Shown here piece after piece: positions 2,668-24,852 of a stretch of DNA of 27,220 bases (position 1 is the first letter of the stretch; every line of letters begins with the position of its first letter). Made by a program: the position numbers and the translations under genes. Source of the DNA: a virus; the IMG/VR virus record IMGVR_UViG_3300025889_000782, positions 1-27,220 of that record; one strand, given 5' to 3'. The notes beneath the pieces were generated by a model, which saw only the letters and a list, made by a program, of their open reading frames with translations, was not told where the DNA came from and made no database searches.

Positions 2668-3309
2668 ATGCGTAACTTAATTAAAATCTTTGGTGCAGTA
2701 ATCCTAATCGGGTTCATCTACATCGGAGTAAGTAATATAAGAATGAGCAACAATAAACTAAAGTTCAAAGAGATAGAACTAAAAAGTCAAGAAGTAAAGC
2801 TAAAACAACTTGACGAACGCTATCAGGAAGTGCTTGACAAAAAAGCCAACACTGAAGCCGAGAAGCAAGAGCAACAGAAGAAGATAGAAGAACTAGAAAA
2901 AGAAAAGCGCAAGCTACAAGAGGATTTATCCGCCAAACTGAATAAACAGCAAGCAGATAAAGAAAAACTCGCTAGAGCGGCCGAGAAAGCGTCAGGAACG
3001 CAAACAGTAAGTGCACTAGCTAGCGGTTGTGATAATGTGAGACAAATAATGGCAAACAAAGGGTTTGTCGGAGCAGAACTTAACGCGGCGGTTGAATTAG
3101 CCAGACTTGAATCAGGCTGTTCGAGCTCAGCAGTTAATAGAAGCTCGAATGCCTGCAACATATATCAAGAATACAGGTGCGGAAAATGGGGCGGACTACA
3201 CAATACTGACGCTCACATCAATGGAGCAATCGGGTACATGCAAGCCTCATATGGTAGCTGGCAAAATGCACTAAATAAATGGCACGCTAGAAGCCCTCAT
3301 TGGTGGTAG
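2668..3309 (+). CDS. Membrane-anchored lysozyme/transglycosylase-like protein (213 aa)
   Basis: Residues 7-23 form a Gly/Ala-containing hydrophobic segment after a short basic start: an anchor or signal-arrest-release type helix. Residues about 28-108 are a charged Lys/Glu/Gln coiled coil. The C-terminal 90 residues look like a phage lysozyme-like or lytic transglycosylase domain: LARLESGCSSSAVNRSSNAC with E148 as the expected catalytic Glu, a YQ pair replacing the usual GLxQ, then an INGAIGYMQASYGSWQNAL segment and a Trp-rich end typical of this family. It would cut the glycan of peptidoglycan. The holin candidate directly upstream supports a lysis role. Alternatively the anchor and stalk could mark a cell-surface wall hydrolase. 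The ribosome binding site is unusual (see 2619-2667). Confidence 0.7.
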   Translation: MRNLIKIFGAVILIGFIYIGVSNIRMSNNKLKFKEIELKSQEVKLKQLDERYQEVLDKKANTEAEKQEQQKKIEELEKEKRKLQEDLSAKLNKQQADKEKLARAAEKASGTQTVSALASGCDNVRQIMANKGFVGAELNAAVELARLESGCSSSAVNRSSNACNIYQEYRCGKWGGLHNTDAHINGAIGYMQASYGSWQNALNKWHARSPHWW

Positions 3310-9924: not shown

Positions 9925-10761
9925 ATGGCACAGAATTTAGCAACTAAATTTAGTTCCAAAGTATCTGAACGCCTACACAGCGAGTCAATTGTTGGTAAAG
10001 TTACTAACAAAAACTACGACTGGGTTGGTGTAGATACTGTAAAAGTCTACTCTGTCGATAATATGACAATGAACGACTACCAAAGAGGCGGTGCGAACCG
10101 TTACGGTAACCCGACTGAAATCGGTACAACCATCCAAACATGGCAATTAGCAGAAGACCGCTCATTTAGCGGTACAGTTGACGCTCTAAACAGCGCACAA
10201 AGCCAGAATGTAACCAAGCCTGGTTCAATCCTAGCGCGACAAGTTCGCGAAGTAATTGTTCCAGAAGTAAACACTTATGTATTAGCAGTAATCAACACAG
10301 CAGGTGCAGCAGCAGACCGTGACGACATCACTAGTGATGCAGCCACATCATTAAGCAATGCCTGGACTGACTTTTTGTCGATACAAGCAGATATAACTAA
10401 CAAACTAGGTAAAACCACTGGCCGTGTAGCTGTAATGACACCAGACTACTACAACTTCCTAAAGCAATCAGGATATGTACTAGCTAGTGACAGTGCTTAC
10501 AAAGACCGTAAATCAGGTTCACTAGGTACAGTTGACGGCTGCGAAATCGTAATACACACCAGTGCCGAAATGCCACAGTATGTTAACTTAATCATCACTC
10601 ACCCTGATGTAACTACATTTGCTGATGTTCTAACTGACTATGTAACTCACAAGAACGCACCAGGTGTAAACGGTTGGTTGATTGAAGGCCGACACGCATA
10701 CGATGCGTTTGTGGATTCAAATAAGGTTAATCAAATCGGTATCCACCGCACACAGGCGTAA
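9925..10761 (+). CDS. Major capsid protein (HK97-fold type)
   Basis: The main shell protein, 278 aa. The segments NYDWVGVDTVKVYSVDNMTMNDY, RYGNPTEIGTTIQ, LAEDRSFSGTVDALNSAQS and ARQVREVIVPEVNTYVLAVI follow the order and wording seen in small HK97-fold capsid proteins of tailed phages (N-arm, E-loop region with DRSF, then the spine helix). The C-terminal half has VMTPDYYNFL and a beta-rich end. There is no long N-terminal delta domain, which agrees with the separate scaffold gene. AGAAAGGAAAC is a strong ribosome binding site. Leu codons are 8 CTA, 5 TTA and 2 TTG. Confidence 0.9.
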   Translation: MAQNLATKFSSKVSERLHSESIVGKVTNKNYDWVGVDTVKVYSVDNMTMNDYQRGGANRYGNPTEIGTTIQTWQLAEDRSFSGTVDALNSAQSQNVTKPGSILARQVREVIVPEVNTYVLAVINTAGAAADRDDITSDAATSLSNAWTDFLSIQADITNKLGKTTGRVAVMTPDYYNFLKQSGYVLASDSAYKDRKSGSLGTVDGCEIVIHTSAEMPQYVNLIITHPDVTTFADVLTDYVTHKNAPGVNGWLIEGRHAYDAFVDSNKVNQIGIHRTQA

Positions 10762-14895: not shown

Positions 14896-15240
14896 ATGAA
14901 ATTAAAGATAAACAGAGGTACAACTTACACAATAACTTACAATCACAAGGTAGATGGGGTAGCCACAACATTAGTAGGGGCAACAGTCCGCTTCACCTTA
15001 AAATCGGTAGAGTGGGACACTGACGCAAACGACAACACAGCCTTAGTTGTAAAGAATATAACAAACGGTAATTCAAGTGGTGAGGCAACAATCACCTTAA
15101 CGCCAACTGATACCTACCAAACACCAGGCAAATACTACTATGATATAAAGGTTGATGTGAATAGTAATGGCGTAACTATCTATAAAGTTGACAGTGGAAC
15201 AGTAACTATCAGTGGTTCGCCAACAAATAGGGTAGCCTAA
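14896..15240 (+). CDS. BppU-like Ig-fold baseplate/fibre protein (114 aa)
   Basis: The sequence [19 protein letters not shown], then [26 protein letters not shown] and [11 protein letters not shown], is the classic single Ig-like domain annotated as BppU N-terminal or related in phages. Such domains attach receptor-binding proteins to the tail. AAAGGAGG lies before the ATG. The stop overlaps the next start (TAATG), so it is coupled to the collagen-like fibre gene, which may be its partner. Confidence 0.65.
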
Positions 15241-16319
15241 TGTCAGACATAACAATTAATGGGGATATTCGGACTGTCACCGCTACGGGTTCAACCACGC
15301 CAGCTGTTTCTGTAACATCTAGCGTTAGTAATGGTCAGAATATACAAGGCTCATTAACTACTGGTGGTGCAGGACCACAAGGACCACAAGGACCACAAGG
15401 ACCAACTGGACCAACAGGTGCAGGCACCACAGGCGCTACTGGTGCTACTGGTGCTCAAGGACCAACAGGGGTTCAAGGTGCAACAGGGGCAGGTGCTACA
15501 GGAGCACAAGGTGCAACAGGCGTAAAAGGCGACACAGGTAATACTGGAGCAACAGGAGCACAAGGCAATACAGGACCACAAGGACCAACAGGACCTACTG
15601 GAAGTGCAGGCTCACAAGGTGCCACTGGAGCAACAGGTGCAGGAACAACAGGTGCTACAGGGGCAACAGGTCAGGGCGTTCCAGCAGGTGGCACAACTGG
15701 ACAAGCCTTAACAAAGAATAGTGCGACTAATTATGATACAGGCTGGTCTACGATAGACTTAAACTCAAGGGTGGCTAAAGCTGGCGACACAATGTCAGGT
15801 TCATTAGGAGTAACTATTTCAGGCTCAAGTACAGATGTGCCGATTACAGCTAAAGTAGACACAAGTGGAGCAACAGGTAATGCGATATTCGCAAGAAATG
15901 ACACCAACTATGCGCATAGTGGAGACTTAATAAGAGGTAAGTTCTATAACGGTACCGACTCAGGTTCAGTAGTAAAGCTTGAGAACGCTGGAACTGGCAA
16001 TTATATTACTGGAGATAGCGTATTCTCAATAGCCAAGAACGGCAATATATCTACAACTGGTAATGTGTCTGTTGCTGATGAGGCTTATGGAGCTGGCTGG
16101 AATAGCTCAACTCAAGTGCCAACCAAGAACGCTATCTACGACAAAATAGAGACAGTAGGGACGGCAAGCGCAATCTCATCGGCTGGAGGTTTAATCTTTG
16201 TAAACCACGGCGGTACAGCAGGCACATCAAGACCTAGTGTATCTGGTGCAGTAATATGGATAGGTACAGTTGAACCTACCAATGCAAGCAATGGTGATAT
16301 CTGGATAGACCAATCGTAG
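15240..16319 (+). CDS. Collagen-like tail fibre protein (359 aa)
   Basis: Residues 45-146 are Gly-X-Y repeats ([15 protein letters not shown]), with three breaks at GAG steps. They should fold as a collagen triple helix and make the protein a trimer. Residues 147-165 ([20 protein letters not shown]) are the common phage linker after such a stalk. The rest is beta-rich and includes [20 protein letters not shown] and [19 protein letters not shown], both frequent at phage fibre ends. It is likely a host-binding fibre. The Y position is mainly Thr or Gln. Confidence 0.8.
15372..15677 (+). repeat. Collagen-type coding repeats
   Basis: Tandem Gly-X-Y codons inside the fibre gene, beginning with near-perfect 9-bp copies of GGACCACAA. 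Such tracts can change length by slippage. Confidence 0.9.
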
Positions 16320-18305: not shown

Positions 18306-21300
18306 ATGGCATGGCTCAATAAACAATGGAGCAAACTTGATTTTTGGGATAAAGAAGAAAACGAACGCCAAAAACAACAGTTTGCTAAACCAACACCTCA
18401 GACCAAACCAGCAGTACCTCAATCAGTAGAGCTGGGTATTAAGAATGCCAAGTTTGGTGTATTAGCTAACAACCCCCAAAGACAGAAGAGCTTTCTAAAC
18501 GACCTAACAACTACTCAAACCATAGCTAATCCAAACCTAACTAACGCTAGAAAACTTATTAGCAACATAAACAACGGCGCAACGGACATAATGGGCTTAA
18601 ACCGTCAAAAGCTAGACCAGAACCTAGAGAAAGTCCATGAAGACCGTTTACGACAAGCTCAACAATCCGCTATAGCCGACCGACTAGCAGGAAGAATTAC
18701 CGGCCAGCAAGCTTTTGGTAGAACATTAGCAAATGCTCAAGCTCCAGCCCCCAAGTTTAGTGATACTCTAACACCAAGCAACAAGCTAGGCCAAGCTGGT
18801 ATGGGTGTAATAAATACCGCTTCTAGTAAGCAGGTAGCCCCAGTAGTCCTAGGAATACGCAGGTCAGCAATTGGCACAGGTGAGGGGTTATCTGGACTAT
18901 ATGACCTAGCAACACCAGGCAAAGGAACTAACCGGTTTGGCAAGAGCCTAATTGGCGCTGGCGCTAGAACCGACCAAGCTGTTAAACAAGGCGGTTACAA
19001 CAATCTAGCCTACAAGGGTGCTCAAGCTGGCACAGATCTAGCTACTTTTGCGGCTGGAGGAACACCATTCACAAAAGGCGTAGGTAAAATAACAACAGCA
19101 GTCGGCAAAAAAGCACCAACTATCGTAGGGGCCGTCTCAAAAGGTGCAGACGCACTAGCAGACACTGGCAAGCTCGGTAAAGCAGTTGTTGCTGGTGGAA
19201 AATATATAGCACGACCAGATGTTCTATCTGATGTAATAAGCGACGCGGCCATGAATGCAGGGTTACGCTCAAACAGGGGCGGCGATATAAACGCAGGCAC
19301 CATAGCAACAGACGTTGGTATGAGTGTTGGAATGGGTGGAGCTTTAGGTCTAACCACTCATGGCGCAGGAGCACTAATTAAGAAAGCGACGAACGGAATT
19401 GAGAACGGTAGCAGACTTATAAATAGAGCTAAATCAGAGGTAGCTACTGGTCTAAATACTCTAGTAAGCGGCAAGAACAAGTACTCAGGCGTGACTAGGC
19501 TTGTATCTACATCGCCCGATACTAACCGAATGATTGTATCGCCAGAGGACGCAGGTAGAGTTATAAAAGAAAACCTAGGTGAGATAGGCGAGAGAATTGC
19601 TGGTGGTGCAAGAAGATTGAAGAATGATGAGGGTGGGTTTATAGCTGGACCACTAGCAGGCGACTTTAGTGAATTCAAAAAGGCTGGAAAAGTATTTGAC
19701 GGCCCAGACGGCAAGCCACGCTTTGAGGTGAGTGATGAGAATATGAGAATCAAGAACCCAGAGGGTAAGACTTTGGGTGAATTGATTGATCACCCGGAGC
19801 TGTTTAGGAATTATCCGGAGTTGGAGAATACGAATGTGAAGTTCGACGCTGGCCGAGGAGAGGATGCGTATGTGTCTAATGGTATATTGCACCTAAAACG
19901 CGACAGCACAGAGGACACGATAACCCATGAAATACAGCACCTCATCCAGGATAATGAGGGATTTGCTGGAGGTGGTGCAGTAAGCGATTTTAGAAATAAA
20001 CAGCCAGCATCCAACAGAGGTAAACTATTAAAAACCACCAGAACTACATACAGTAATGAGATATACAGGGAGCTGCTTGATAAGGGTCTAGAACCTCCTA
20101 TAAATAGGGCGTTGATGAAAGACTCTAGATTCGCAGGAATGCCCGATTCATTCTTCTTCAACCTAGAGAATAATAAGGCACGAGCTATGGCACAGAGGTT
20201 TACGCCAGAAAAGCTAGGCGAATATGATGATTTTGTCAGGAAATACCCGACGGCTAAGGAACAGTACAATAATCTAGCCGGCGAAGCCGAAGCCCGAGCA
20301 GTCGAGACTCGTCGCAAGATGACTGATGCAGAGAGGTATGTGAGTGGTATAAACCCTGCACCTGAAAAATCATTACCAGATATGAAAAATGAGTTTGATG
20401 GTTTATTGCAAAAGATTAGAAGCCGAACTGCTACAGATGCAGATAGTCAAAGGTACTCAATACTTAAAGACAGAATAGCAGTAGCAGATGGTAAAAAAGG
20501 CGCACCAAATCCTGAACGATGGGTAGCTGATAAGCCTATAAAATTACCTGACGTAGTTTACAGAGGAACAAGCAAGGATAGTGGCAGTGGGTTTGCTATG
20601 TTTGGTGGTGGTAAATATACAGCCGCGAGTAAGGCAGAAGCAGCAAAACACGGCACTGTTCAAACTCTAGGTAAAGAGTCACTGCCTAGTAACCCGTTAC
20701 AGTTTAAGACTACTCAGGACTTCTCACAGTGGGAATATGAGATGGCTCGAAAACTAGGCGTTAATAAAAATGAGCTTTATGATACCAACAAAGGTGCTGA
20801 AACACTTATAAATGCTATTGGTCACGACGGAGTTACGATTGGTACGGGTAAAGACCTAATCGCAGTTAAGTTTTCACCTGAGACAATATCAGAATATAAG
20901 CCTCGCTCCACCTTCTACGACTCCCTAGACGTACCCAAAAAAGACTTGATAGTGCGAGAGGGTGGTGGTAAGGCGATGAGTGTTGAGAAGCCTACCGGCC
21001 TCAAAGCCGAAGCAAAAGCACCGAAAGTACCTCGTGGCAACATTGAAGAAGCGGTGATAAAAGGGGAAAATATGCCACTAGAAATTGCTCCAGCTAAGAG
21101 CATTGGGCAGTTACAGGCGACCAGCAGACTACCTAAAGACAAGAAATTGCGTGAATTAGAATTAGATCAACTTGGAGCAACAAAGATAACGCCAAACAAG
21201 CCATCGCAAAAGATGACAGAAGCCGAGTTTAATTCCTTGCTAGATACTGCCGAAGCCCAAAACCCGAACCTAAAGACTAAAAAGGCAGTTGAGATTGCTA

Positions 21301-24095
21301 CCAAGCCAAAGCGTGAACAACAGTTAAAAGCCGTGATGGAAGGTGACCTAGAAACATCAAATAAACTACGCCAAGAGATAGCCGAAGTTAAAGACGGTAC
21401 ACTAAAATCTGCACCAGATATGAACAAAGTCTTTGATAATGAAGACTTAGGAAAGGTTGAACTAAAAGATATTAAAGGCCGAGCTAATAAACAGACTAAA
21501 CAGAAGTTTATGACTAGGGCTAATGAATATTTGGGTGAAAAACAGGCCGGTAGATTTCGCGCAACAGATAGTGCCAGAACATTCAACGAACAATTTGGCG
21601 ATCTTACAGACGCTCAAAAACTACAAGTAATAGAGGGAGCAGATAATCCAGAATTACGAACAACCGACAACAGAGTCAATCAAGCAATTGACTCGCTACA
21701 CAAAGAATACGACACCGCTTACCGCTACTACACTAAAGACAAGAACATAAACATGGGTTACCAATCTAGTTACTATCCACGAATGTACAAGAACCCAGCG
21801 ACAGGTGAGGCAATTGATAGTGCAACCTTCCAGCTGTTACAAAAAGCCAGCTCCAGACAAAAGGGGCGTACTGCTGACCAAATAGCTACTGATTTTCTAA
21901 TTACCAAAGACCCAGCCGAGGCCTTACAGAAGTACCACGCTAGTCTAGAAAGTGCAGCTGCTGGTAAGAAATTCTTACAAGACCTACAAAAAGACGGTTT
22001 AGTAATGCAATCCACCGAACCAGTACGAGGTATGCAGCCGATAGTTGCTGAAGGTATGCAAGATGCAGGTACAATCTACTATGCCAAACCAGAAGTCGCC
22101 AAGTCATTAAATAAGATGTTTGGTAACCAAGAAGCATCTGGACTATTTGAAAACTTAATGGAAAAGGGGGCTGGACTAAATAGTTTTGTTCAATCATTCG
22201 TGCTATCTGGTGGTGTGCCAAATACACCACTAAATGCCTTTGGAGTAATGCAAGTAATGAAGCATACAATGGCAGGTCACCCGATCCAAGCAGCAAAAGC
22301 TTTCCACAAGGGTATGAGCAGAGGTGGTGCTGATAAGTTCTTTAGGGCTAACAGCGATGCAATGCAACAACTAGCGAAACAAGGCTATACCATACGAGTC
22401 GACTACGACCCAGCTTATAAGTCTGGCAGTAAGCGGATTGCCGAAGCTTTTAAGGATTCTAAGGCAAAAGGTCTAAACGAGGGTTGGGATCAATTCACTA
22501 ACGACGCTACCTTTAAGCGATTCATGCCAGCTATGGAAGTACTACACTTTAAAGGAGTGAGAGACGGCTTAATTAAAAGAGGTGTACCACAAGAACAAGC
22601 CATAAAACAAGCCGCTGACGCTACCGGTAACTTCTTTGGTAAAACTAAAGTAGCAACCGAAGCTACTAGAAGTAAGGTTGGTTCTGACGCCGCTGGTGCA
22701 TTTTTGTTTGCACCTCGCTTTAGGGAGTCAATGATAAACTTCTGGGGCAGAAATATTAAAGCCTTGAACCCTAAGAATATCGGCAAAGTAGAATACCGAG
22801 ATAACCAAAAGTTCCTAGTAGCAGCTGCCATTACTTACGCCACAATGGAAGGGCTAAACAAATCACTAACAGGTGAGTGGATGCACGATAATCCCGACGG
22901 TAAGAAGGACAAGTTACTAATACCGGCCGACAAACTAAAAGCCGTTGGTATAGATACCAAAGGTAAAGATATAGGCATACCATTCCTACCAAGTATTGCC
23001 ACTGTACCTAGAAATGCTGTATCTGGAATTTACAACCTTGCGACTGGCAACACTAAAGAAGCTGGAAAAAACTTACAGAGCTTCTTGTCAATGCCAGTAA
23101 AAACTGCCAATGAGCTATTAACAAACGAAAATTACTTTGGCAGACAGATAGTTGATGAAGACGCTACCACTCCTGAAAAACTCAGTCAAGCAGCCTCGCA
23201 CATTGTGAGCAGCAATATGCAACCGTGGATTCGAGAAGGCTTAAATATGGCTGGCCAAAAGCTACCCGAAGGAACTAAAAAAGCACTTGGCATAAAACAG
23301 AAGTCTGGCGTTGAAACAGCTTCTAACGCCCTGGAATTGCCGTTTAGATTCTATGACCCTAACTACTACAAAAAGGGTGATGAGTACATCAACAGGCAAG
23401 GTAAAGACGCTAGTGTTAAACGAGATGGCAAGTATGTAAAGGTGAGCGATCTACCACTAGGTCAACGCTTTCAAGAATCACTAAAAAATCTAGGTAAGTC
23501 TGACGATAGCGACTATGTTAAACGAAATGTAGCCGAGATAGACAGTGAGATGAATAAGATATATCAGAAGTATGGACTAACGCCAGCCAAGACAACGACC
23601 GCTGTTGCTGGAAAATGGGCAGAATACGATAACAGGCTCAAAGACGGTAAGATTAGCCCATTAAAACAACCAGCCGAAGAAAGAAAGCTACTTAGAGATA
23701 CCTATAAGCTCCAAGCTCAAGGAGCTACTAGAGACTTCCTAAGCGTATCTAGCGACAATGATATGAGACAAGCAATCAAAGACGGCCTAGTAGATAAAAA
23801 GACCTTAGAATCGGCCATAGAACTAGACAACTTCTTAGTTGCAAACGGACTACAAACATCACCAACAATCGGTAAGAAACTACGGTCAGAACTTGGCTAC
23901 AGTACACCAGGCGGTAAAAAGGTCGACAAGAAATCGGTTGCAAGGGGTAGAGGCAACAAAAAGATAATTGACGATATGATAAAAGCAATGCTAGCTAGCT
24001 CAGAGGGCAAATCAAAACTAAACAAGAACCTAAGAACACTAATAGAAGGCCTGTCTAAAAAAGAATATGCTAAGGCCAAGAAGGTAACTATATGA
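18306..24095 (+). CDS. Giant multidomain (polyvalent-type) internal virion protein with HExxH and ART-like domains (1929 aa)
   Basis: The N-terminal 360 residues contain Gly/Ala-rich, weakly hydrophobic stretches (IGTGEGLSGLYDLATPG, AGTIATDVGMSVGMGGALG) typical of large ejected phage proteins. At about 480-670 lies a metallopeptidase-like unit: LGELIDHPELFRNYPEL, then H541-E-I-Q-H545 (HExxH) and GEAEAR (659-664), whose Glu may be the third zinc ligand. At about 748-885, VVYRGTS, FGGGKYTAASKAEAAKHG, HDGVTI and DLIAVKFSPETISEY follow the order of ADP-ribosyltransferase-like domains of phage polyvalent proteins. A Lys-rich linker and long helical regions follow. It is probably ejected early to process host proteins. 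GAGAGGGGG precedes the ATG. Confidence 0.75.
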   Translation: MAWLNKQWSKLDFWDKEENERQKQQFAKPTPQTKPAVPQSVELGIKNAKFGVLANNPQRQKSFLNDLTTTQTIANPNLTNARKLISNINNGATDIMGLNRQKLDQNLEKVHEDRLRQAQQSAIADRLAGRITGQQAFGRTLANAQAPAPKFSDTLTPSNKLGQAGMGVINTASSKQVAPVVLGIRRSAIGTGEGLSGLYDLATPGKGTNRFGKSLIGAGARTDQAVKQGGYNNLAYKGAQAGTDLATFAAGGTPFTKGVGKITTAVGKKAPTIVGAVSKGADALADTGKLGKAVVAGGKYIARPDVLSDVISDAAMNAGLRSNRGGDINAGTIATDVGMSVGMGGALGLTTHGAGALIKKATNGIENGSRLINRAKSEVATGLNTLVSGKNKYSGVTRLVSTSPDTNRMIVSPEDAGRVIKENLGEIGERIAGGARRLKNDEGGFIAGPLAGDFSEFKKAGKVFDGPDGKPRFEVSDENMRIKNPEGKTLGELIDHPELFRNYPELENTNVKFDAGRGEDAYVSNGILHLKRDSTEDTITHEIQHLIQDNEGFAGGGAVSDFRNKQPASNRGKLLKTTRTTYSNEIYRELLDKGLEPPINRALMKDSRFAGMPDSFFFNLENNKARAMAQRFTPEKLGEYDDFVRKYPTAKEQYNNLAGEAEARAVETRRKMTDAERYVSGINPAPEKSLPDMKNEFDGLLQKIRSRTATDADSQRYSILKDRIAVADGKKGAPNPERWVADKPIKLPDVVYRGTSKDSGSGFAMFGGGKYTAASKAEAAKHGTVQTLGKESLPSNPLQFKTTQDFSQWEYEMARKLGVNKNELYDTNKGAETLINAIGHDGVTIGTGKDLIAVKFSPETISEYKPRSTFYDSLDVPKKDLIVREGGGKAMSVEKPTGLKAEAKAPKVPRGNIEEAVIKGENMPLEIAPAKSIGQLQATSRLPKDKKLRELELDQLGATKITPNKPSQKMTEAEFNSLLDTAEAQNPNLKTKKAVEIATKPKREQQLKAVMEGDLETSNKLRQEIAEVKDGTLKSAPDMNKVFDNEDLGKVELKDIKGRANKQTKQKFMTRANEYLGEKQAGRFRATDSARTFNEQFGDLTDAQKLQVIEGADNPELRTTDNRVNQAIDSLHKEYDTAYRYYTKDKNINMGYQSSYYPRMYKNPATGEAIDSATFQLLQKASSRQKGRTADQIATDFLITKDPAEALQKYHASLESAAAGKKFLQDLQKDGLVMQSTEPVRGMQPIVAEGMQDAGTIYYAKPEVAKSLNKMFGNQEASGLFENLMEKGAGLNSFVQSFVLSGGVPNTPLNAFGVMQVMKHTMAGHPIQAAKAFHKGMSRGGADKFFRANSDAMQQLAKQGYTIRVDYDPAYKSGSKRIAEAFKDSKAKGLNEGWDQFTNDATFKRFMPAMEVLHFKGVRDGLIKRGVPQEQAIKQAADATGNFFGKTKVATEATRSKVGSDAAGAFLFAPRFRESMINFWGRNIKALNPKNIGKVEYRDNQKFLVAAAITYATMEGLNKSLTGEWMHDNPDGKKDKLLIPADKLKAVGIDTKGKDIGIPFLPSIATVPRNAVSGIYNLATGNTKEAGKNLQSFLSMPVKTANELLTNENYFGRQIVDEDATTPEKLSQAASHIVSSNMQPWIREGLNMAGQKLPEGTKKALGIKQKSGVETASNALELPFRFYDPNYYKKGDEYINRQGKDASVKRDGKYVKVSDLPLGQRFQESLKNLGKSDDSDYVKRNVAEIDSEMNKIYQKYGLTPAKTTTAVAGKWAEYDNRLKDGKISPLKQPAEERKLLRDTYKLQAQGATRDFLSVSSDNDMRQAIKDGLVDKKTLESAIELDNFLVANGLQTSPTIGKKLRSELGYSTPGGKKVDKKSVARGRGNKKIIDDMIKAMLASSEGKSKLNKNLRTLIEGLSKKEYAKAKKVTI

Positions 24096-24174: not shown

Positions 24175-24852
24175 ATGACATTAACAGACGCAATTACAAG
24201 GCTCAACTACATCTTACGAGGTACAGACGATGACGCCCCAAATAGTGGAACTGACGAATATACCTACTGGCTAGATACCCTCAACCGCAAGAAAAACGAG
24301 CTTTACTATGACACGACTAACACTTGGCGAACGGCATATAGTATTGAATCACTAGGCTCAGTTACCGCTAGTGCCACGCCGGCCTACGACCTACCAACCA
24401 ACTTTCTATCACCAGCTAGTAACCCTTACATAATTACCGCAGACAGTAACCGTGTTGACCAAGTATTATCTACACCTCAAGCTCAAAACCCGAACATACG
24501 CACCTTTTATATAGCTGGCCAGAACCCACAAGTACTGTATTGTACCACCGAGATTAAGGCTACCGAGAATATTGTAGGCGGAACTTTATACCTACCCGGC
24601 TATTACTTGCCAGATGATTTAACTACTGGGGCAGATGAACTACTGGTACCAAACCCCGATTGGTTGGTTATGGCCACAGCTAGTGAGATTGCTTTTAACG
24701 ACATAGTTTATGAAGATAAGAGTGCAGATATAAACGCCAAAGCTAACGCTCTGTATCAAGCAATGGTAGCTAATAACCGCCGAGCCGTATTCAACCAACC
24801 AACTACCATTACATACAACGGTTATCGCATAAGTCAGAACCACAAGAGGTAG
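24175..24852 (+). CDS. Head-tail adaptor / tail-tube-A-like protein (225 aa)
   Basis: The first half, LTDAITRLNYILRGTDDDAP with YTYWLDTLNRKKNELYYDTT, is helical and resembles neck adaptor proteins that dock under the portal in short- and long-tailed phages. The second half is beta-rich with LYLPGYYLPDDLTTGADELL, and a C-terminal helical segment has EIAFNDIVYEDKSADINAKA. The next gene looks like a P22 gp10-type stabilisation protein, which supports a neck position. AGGAG is 12 nt from the ATG, with a small GCG-AAAA-CGC hairpin between them. Confidence 0.6.
   Translation: MTLTDAITRLNYILRGTDDDAPNSGTDEYTYWLDTLNRKKNELYYDTTNTWRTAYSIESLGSVTASATPAYDLPTNFLSPASNPYIITADSNRVDQVLSTPQAQNPNIRTFYIAGQNPQVLYCTTEIKATENIVGGTLYLPGYYLPDDLTTGADELLVPNPDWLVMATASEIAFNDIVYEDKSADINAKANALYQAMVANNRRAVFNQPTTITYNGYRISQNHKR

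What the first reader, a model, noticed from the sequence alone, without database searches (positions are those of the whole stretch)
18306..24095. 1929-residue phage protein combining an HExxH metallopeptidase unit with an ADP-ribosyltransferase-like domain
Seen: H541-EIQ-H545, GEAEAR at 659-664, YRGTS at 752-756, FGGGKYTAASKAEAAKHG and an IAVKF..ETI end, in that order, inside one very long gene among virion genes. Known: large phage polyvalent proteins carry such peptidase and ART domains and are thought to be delivered with the DNA. Inferred: the protein is ejected and modifies or cleaves host targets early in infection. The ART-like part has Arg where many relatives have His (YHGT), so its activity class is open.
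Basis: partly seen in the sequence, partly recalled or inferred. Interest (0 to 1): 0.72.

Follow-up and report, generated by a model that had tools for sequence, protein, structure and literature searches.

The report
Modular phage polyvalent ejection protein
This phage gene makes a giant protein, probably carried in the virus particle and injected into the bacterium, that holds a zinc-protease-like domain with an ADP-ribosyltransferase-like domain inserted into it; this is a known type of protein, but its middle appears to be swapped wholesale between closely related phages.

Summary
The 1929-aa ORF and every named motif sit at the stated residues. Residues 461-690 belong to the LPD23-linked HExxH metallopeptidase family of phage polyvalent proteins. 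Residues 746-865 are an ART domain: a profile of its family hits PARP and cholix ARTs, and its predicted fold best matches AcrIF11 and MbcT. Peptidase plus ART in one large phage protein is a published theme (Iyer 2017), so the core claim is a new member of a known kind.

(1) The ART is nested in the peptidase, between the GExEAR helix and the family's conserved C-terminal tail (DVPxxDLIVR..G.GKAMS). Relative L012 has an ART-PolyVal at the same point; L020 has the empty site. (2) The gene is a mosaic hot spot. Phage L003 is about 91% identical in flanking DNA, yet shares only aa 1-66, a 101-bp seam starting at the GGGKAMS motif, and aa 1699-1929. Ten syntenic phages conserve the neighbours but not this protein.

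Ejection, zinc binding and catalysis are inferred. Host unknown.

The parts
18306..24095 (+). 1929-aa polyvalent, probable ejection protein
   Evidence: syntenic homologues
18306..18503 (+). conserved N-terminal segment, aa 1-66 (DFWDKEEN), shared with L003
   Evidence: sharp identity break near 18503
18504..20960 (+). variable block A, aa 67-885: Gly/Ala-rich part, peptidase, ART
   Evidence: no homology to L003 in nearly all of this span
19686..20375 (+). LPD23-like segment plus HExxH metallopeptidase core, aa 461-690
19926..19940 (+). HEIQH presumed zinc-binding motif, aa 541-545
20280..20297 (+). GEAEAR, aa 659-664, presumed third zinc ligand (E660 or E662)
   Evidence: lies on a predicted helix
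20337..20906 (+). insertion of about 190 aa (aa 678-867) splitting the peptidase domain from its tail
   Evidence: alignment A4; tail spacing 28 residues in most relatives versus 216 here; empty site in L020
20541..20900 (+). ADP-ribosyltransferase-like domain, aa 746-865 (R753, Y771, D841)
20907..20981 (+). C-terminal tail of the peptidase family, STFYDSLDVPKKDLIVREGGGKAMS, aa 868-892
20961..21061 (+). 101-bp seam (aa 886-919) 93% identical to L003 between non-homologous blocks
21062..23399 (+). variable block B, aa 920-1698; aa 1590-1698 weakly like the LPD38-bearing part of L003
23400..24092 (+). conserved C-terminal segment, aa 1699-1929
   Evidence: 88% DNA identity to L003; protein homologues in L004, L093, L100, L007
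17223..18290 (+). upstream coiled-coil-like virion gene, syntenic partner
24175..24852 (+). SU10-type adaptor
   Evidence: PF24175
24858..26855 (+). 665-aa conserved tail protein, synteny anchor

Best explanation
The gene encodes a polyvalent ejection protein of a short-tailed phage. The conserved ends (aa 1-66 and 1699-1929) probably carry the virion-specific functions such as packaging and partner contacts. The exchangeable middle carries cargo. In this allele the cargo is a zincin-like metallopeptidase with an ART domain inserted between its GExEAR helix and its conserved C-terminal tail. After or during ejection the ART probably ADP-ribosylates a host target, while the peptidase either cuts the polypeptide to release modules or cuts a host protein. 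Shown by computation: domain identities, nesting, gene context, mosaic exchange. Inferred: packaging, ejection, zinc binding, catalysis, targets.
For: Peptidase homology to phage AF gp16, which follows annotated internal virion proteins and a structural lysozyme. Homologues carry LPD23 and DUF6782 metallopeptidase Pfam matches. AF2 core pLDDT above 90, with strands, then the HExxH helix and later the GExEAR helix; best BFVD matches are LPD-bearing phage proteins, E down to 1.3e-8. ART: significant alignment to L004 (0 of 1000 shuffles as good) and, globally, to L012 (0 of 1000); L012 domain matches PF18760 ART-PolyVal, E 1.8e-6; a profile built without the window and its two closest relatives gives 16 bits at this place versus 4.4 for the best shuffle; family profile hits PARP10/14/15 and cholix ARTs; AF2 pLDDT 76 with top Foldseek hits 6kyf (prob 0.94) and MbcT 6fkg (0.69). 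Nesting. Exchange. Published precedent: PMC5512222, PMC9503650.
Against: No direct evidence of packaging; no model coordinates to test zinc geometry; no PDB fold match for the peptidase. ART Foldseek E-values (0.02 and above) are not individually significant, and local alignment to L012 without flanks is no better than shuffles. The strand-1 His, needed together with Tyr in AcrIF11 (H20A/Y46A double mutant, PMC12421852), is Arg here. Only one assembly covers the ART and the 20961 seam; L002 confirms the window only up to 20343.
Confidence: 0.62

Rival explanations
1. The peptidase is a maturation or autoprocessing enzyme acting inside the virion or on the polyprotein, and the ART-like fold is inactive or structural; no host protein is modified.
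For: Processing of polyvalent proteins by their own metallopeptidases is a leading hypothesis and P1 DdrB is packaged in processed form (PMC5512222). The ART has His replaced by Arg.
Against: Tyr771 and Asp841 are kept; Arg at the strand-1 position recurs in 5 of 28 ART rows, so it looks like a natural subtype rather than decay. The close relative L003 lacks the peptidase, which argues against an essential maturation role.
Confidence: 0.25
2. The protein is mainly a structural or channel-forming internal virion protein whose middle drifts neutrally; the enzyme-like domains are incidental passengers.
For: Gene position next to the adaptor; the conserved parts are the ends; several alleles have no recognisable Pfam domain.
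Against: The HExxH and surrounding residues are conserved in distant phages; replacement occurs in discrete blocks with sharp edges rather than by drift; several alleles carry ART-like segments.
Confidence: 0.1
3. The mosaic picture is partly an assembly artefact: window or L003 is a chimera at the shared seams.
For: The seams are short stretches of high identity, where assemblers can switch; each joint is covered by a single contig.
Against: Reading frames stay open through all joints; the peptidase tail continues correctly after the ART; L012 independently has an ART at the same point and L020 shows the empty site; eight other syntenic phages are equally divergent in this gene.
Confidence: 0.06

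Closest known systems
Polyvalent proteins of phages with zincin-like MPTase and LPD23 (Iyer et al. 2017, PMC5512222)
   Same: Very large multidomain phage protein; HExxH metallopeptidase behind an LPD23-type segment; ART in the same polypeptide; encoded among virion genes.
   Different: Here the ART interrupts the peptidase domain before its tail; in the other ORFs held with both domains the ART lies outside the peptidase match, L012 excepted.
ART-PolyVal (PF18760), Tox-ART-HYD2 clade
   Same: Order of motifs Y-x-G-T, Y-x-T/A, G-x-D-G-V and predicted fold; positional equivalent L012 matches PF18760.
   Different: Arg753 instead of His; the window domain alone does not reach Pfam detection.
AcrIF11 (PDB 6KYF), ART anti-CRISPR
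   Same: Best Foldseek match of the ART model (prob 0.94); the catalytic Asp of AcrIF11 lies after the helical region, as does Asp841.
   Different: Free-standing small protein with the H, Y, D set; about 18% identity; no evidence that this ART targets CRISPR.
Pseudomonas phage AF gp16
   Same: 2213-aa protein in the internal virion protein cluster with LPD22, LPD23 and the same metallopeptidase.
   Different: No ART insertion in the peptidase; no detectable similarity outside it.
Phage T4 Alt
   Same: Model for a head-packaged, injected ART.
   Different: Different ART family, not a polyvalent protein; packaging is demonstrated for Alt, not here.

Membership tests
Zincin-like MPTase of polyvalent proteins | HExxH on a helix after a three-stranded sheet | tested here: met
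   H541-H545; AF2 strands then HExxH helix, pLDDT above 90
Zincin-like MPTase of polyvalent proteins | Glu ligand on a second C-terminal helix | tested here: met
   E660/E662 in GEAEAR on a predicted helix; row selection used this motif
Zincin-like MPTase of polyvalent proteins | bound zinc and peptidase activity | not testable with these tools
   no coordinates or assay available
LPD23 (PF18838) | Pfam profile match | tested here: inconclusive
   Window itself has no hit; two of the four aligned homologues match, AF gp16 strongly; L012 and L017 weakly, below the curated cut-off
ART-PolyVal / ART superfamily | Pfam PF18760 match | tested here: not met
   No match for the window domain; positional homologue L012 matches at E 1.8e-6, just below the curated cut-off
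ART-PolyVal / ART superfamily | ART fold | tested here: met
   AF2 strand order and top Foldseek hits AcrIF11 and MbcT, E-values modest; family profile hits PARP and cholix
ART-PolyVal / ART superfamily | His (strand 1), Tyr (strand 2), Asp (strand 5) triad | tested here: not met
   Arg753, Tyr771, Asp841: two of three kept; the Asp assignment rests on predicted strands
Polyvalent ejection protein | several unrelated domains in one large ORF among virion genes | tested here: met
Polyvalent ejection protein | packaged in the virion and delivered with DNA | not testable with these tools
   needs virion proteomics

The most novel reading that the evidence does not exclude
This phage lineage keeps a cargo-exchange slot in its ejection protein: fixed end segments and short conserved seams (one being the end motif of the peptidase tail) flank blocks that recombine as units, much as polymorphic toxins swap warheads. 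Nesting the ART inside the peptidase couples the two, so that cleavage near the peptidase tail frees or activates the ART after delivery.
Probability: 0.2. Interest if true: 0.65.

Novelty: new variant of a known kind. Interest (0 to 1): 0.46.

Why it matters
Polyvalent ejection proteins are thought to be first-strike tools of phages, but most are known only as isolated giant sequences. A locus with near-identical neighbours and swapped middles gives a natural experiment: which parts are needed for delivery and which are cargo can be read from the seams. The nested ART with an empty-site relative suggests a testable link between proteolysis and ART release.

Tried and rejected
Host search: two genome-contig scans, with the 665-aa tail protein and with the peptidase, found no relative; TerL resembles proteobacterial and other phages, MCP resembles Streptococcus and Geobacillus phages, so no host is claimed. 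Direct Pfam, PHROG, NCBIfam and PDB sequence searches of the window protein were negative. The first AF2 model failed on the ART (pLDDT mostly 30-65) because the alignment had almost no ART rows there; a separate ART alignment gave a usable model. I first took the catalytic acid to be at position 857 (FDP in relatives, Ser here); the predicted strand order and the AcrIF11 comparison place it at Asp841, so I dropped the claim of a doubly degenerate site. No 19-residue window of mean hydropathy above 1.2 was found, so no transmembrane claim is made. Pattern scans for close relatives of the ART alone found only loci already held. L017 has a further insert at the ART site whose identity I did not test.

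Full report
Observation. The ORF at 18306-24095 (+) encodes 1929 aa without interruption. The window is a virus record of 27,220 bases. The gene stands in a one-strand virion cluster with TerL, a portal-like protein, MCP and a collagen-like fibre upstream and an SU10-type adaptor plus a 665-aa tail protein downstream, which fits a short-tailed phage.

Peptidase. The whole protein has no significant Pfam, PHROG, NCBIfam or PDB sequence hit, but tblastn against phage records finds the HExxH region in Pseudomonas phage AF gp16 and in two uncultured phages. AF gp16 is 2213 aa, directly follows annotated internal virion proteins and a structural lysozyme, and carries LPD22 and LPD23. A profile-style scan of IMG/VR gives at least 419 relatives; members match LPD23 and the DUF6782 putative metallopeptidase family. 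In 56 aligned sequences, residues outside the selection motifs (Q548, E551, G556, Y654, R669) are invariant. The AF2 model has pLDDT above 90 over the core, with strands, then the HExxH helix, and later a helix bearing GEAEAR, matching the description of polyvalent MPTases in PMC5512222. Foldseek found no PDB match, but its best viral matches are LPD-bearing proteins.

ART. Residues 746-865 align end to end with the L012 domain that matches PF18760 (E 1.8e-6; alignment A5) and significantly with a segment of L004 (0 of 1000 shuffles as good). A profile built without the window, L004 or L012 gives 16 bits here against at most 4.4 in 200 shuffles, though only E 0.2 for the whole protein; with those relatives included it scores 28.8 bits. 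The family profile hits PARP10, PARP14, PARP15 and cholix ART domains in the PDB (best E 0.0099). AF2 on a 28-row alignment gives mean pLDDT 76 and a strand order fitting an ART; the top Foldseek hits are 6kyf (AcrIF11, an ART anti-CRISPR; PMC12421852) and the MbcT toxin 6fkg; that MbcT is an ART-like NAD+ phosphorylase is my own knowledge (its name appears with that term in the papers). Positions: R753 ends strand 1, where 21 of 28 rows have His and 5 have Arg; Y771 lies on strand 2; D841 directly precedes strand 5. PMC5512222 defines this ART clade by His, Tyr and Asp in strands 1, 2 and 5, so two of three are kept. Arg at this place is also found in L004, L063 and L084, and by eye in L003 and L093.

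Nesting. Most relatives run from GExEAR through MTxxERR..PP to a tail DVPxxDxIVR, which starts 28 residues after GExEAR. In the window this distance is 216 residues, and the peptidase profile matches 461-904 around the ART at 749-861. L012 has an ART at the same point, L017 a different insert, and L020 none...MTDGARQTKPFYDSLDVKKEDLNIRDGKGMAMS. Among 33 ORFs held with both domains (some redundant), only the window and L012 (held twice) have the ART clearly inside the peptidase match. So co-occurrence is common; the nested order is rare.

Mosaic exchange. L003 is a close relative: 97% identity in the tail protein and about 91% DNA identity in most flanking genes. In the big gene, identity stops sharply near 18503, reappears for 101 bp at 20961-21061 (93%), and resumes at 23400. 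The island starts at codon 886, the GGGKAMS end of the peptidase tail, although L003 has no HExxH. L003 carries instead a weak ART-like segment (PF18760 E 0.043) and a strong LPD38 match (E 1.2e-26). Across ten phages with the same order of coiled-coil gene, big gene, adaptor and tail protein, tail proteins are 52-97% identical over nearly full length while the big proteins share 0 to 64% of their length by BLASTP. L020 shares its first ~110 residues with L096 and L099, its peptidase with the window, and its C-terminal part with L099 and L095. This pattern points to block exchange, with the caution that each joint rests on one contig; L002 confirms the window at 99.8% only as far as 20343.

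Mechanism. Best reading: a head-packaged, ejected polyvalent protein with constant ends and swappable cargo. Published theory offers two roles for the peptidase, self-processing and action after injection (PMC5512222); T4 Alt is the model for an injected ART (PMC5512222, PMC9503650). The nested order suggests that cutting near the tail could separate modules, but nothing here shows cutting. The variation resembles that of host-contact genes such as the fibres, which also differ between the window and L003; this favours a host-directed cargo over a purely structural role.

Novelty. The domain pair and protein class are known. The nested ART with an empty-site relative, and the clean exchange of the middle between close relatives, I did not find in the papers searched; that is a limited search. 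I rate it a new variant of a known kind.

Noticed in passing
949-1142: Hexanucleotide tandem array (TATGGC, about 32 copies) near the left end; its reverse strand makes a probably spurious His/Ser/Arg-rich ORF at 782-1324.
   Followed up: no
15240-16319: Collagen-like fibre gene; the L003 version is 895 aa and continues into sequence absent here, so fibres are another variable gene of this lineage.
   Followed up: partly
L012:5011-10847: In L012 the big protein is split into two overlapping ORFs, the second one starting near a G.G.AMS seam.
   Followed up: partly
9925-10761: Major capsid protein is closest to Streptococcus and Geobacillus phage capsids (about 40%), whereas TerL resembles mostly proteobacterial phage terminases; mixed ancestry and unknown host.
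   Followed up: partly
2668-3309: Possible lytic enzyme: coiled coil plus a C-terminal part similar to Streptomyces phage hypothetical proteins; the L003 counterpart matches the SLT transglycosylase domain.
   Followed up: partly
L017:4483-7473: A different insert (VYSSKPLG...FVTPSEMFASEYAGG...) occupies the ART site of the same peptidase in L017; identity untested.
   Followed up: no
L093:4750-4959: YRGAP...GDFITTN...GEEYIYRP segment in the syntenic gene of L093 looks like a different ART class; judged by eye only.
   Followed up: no
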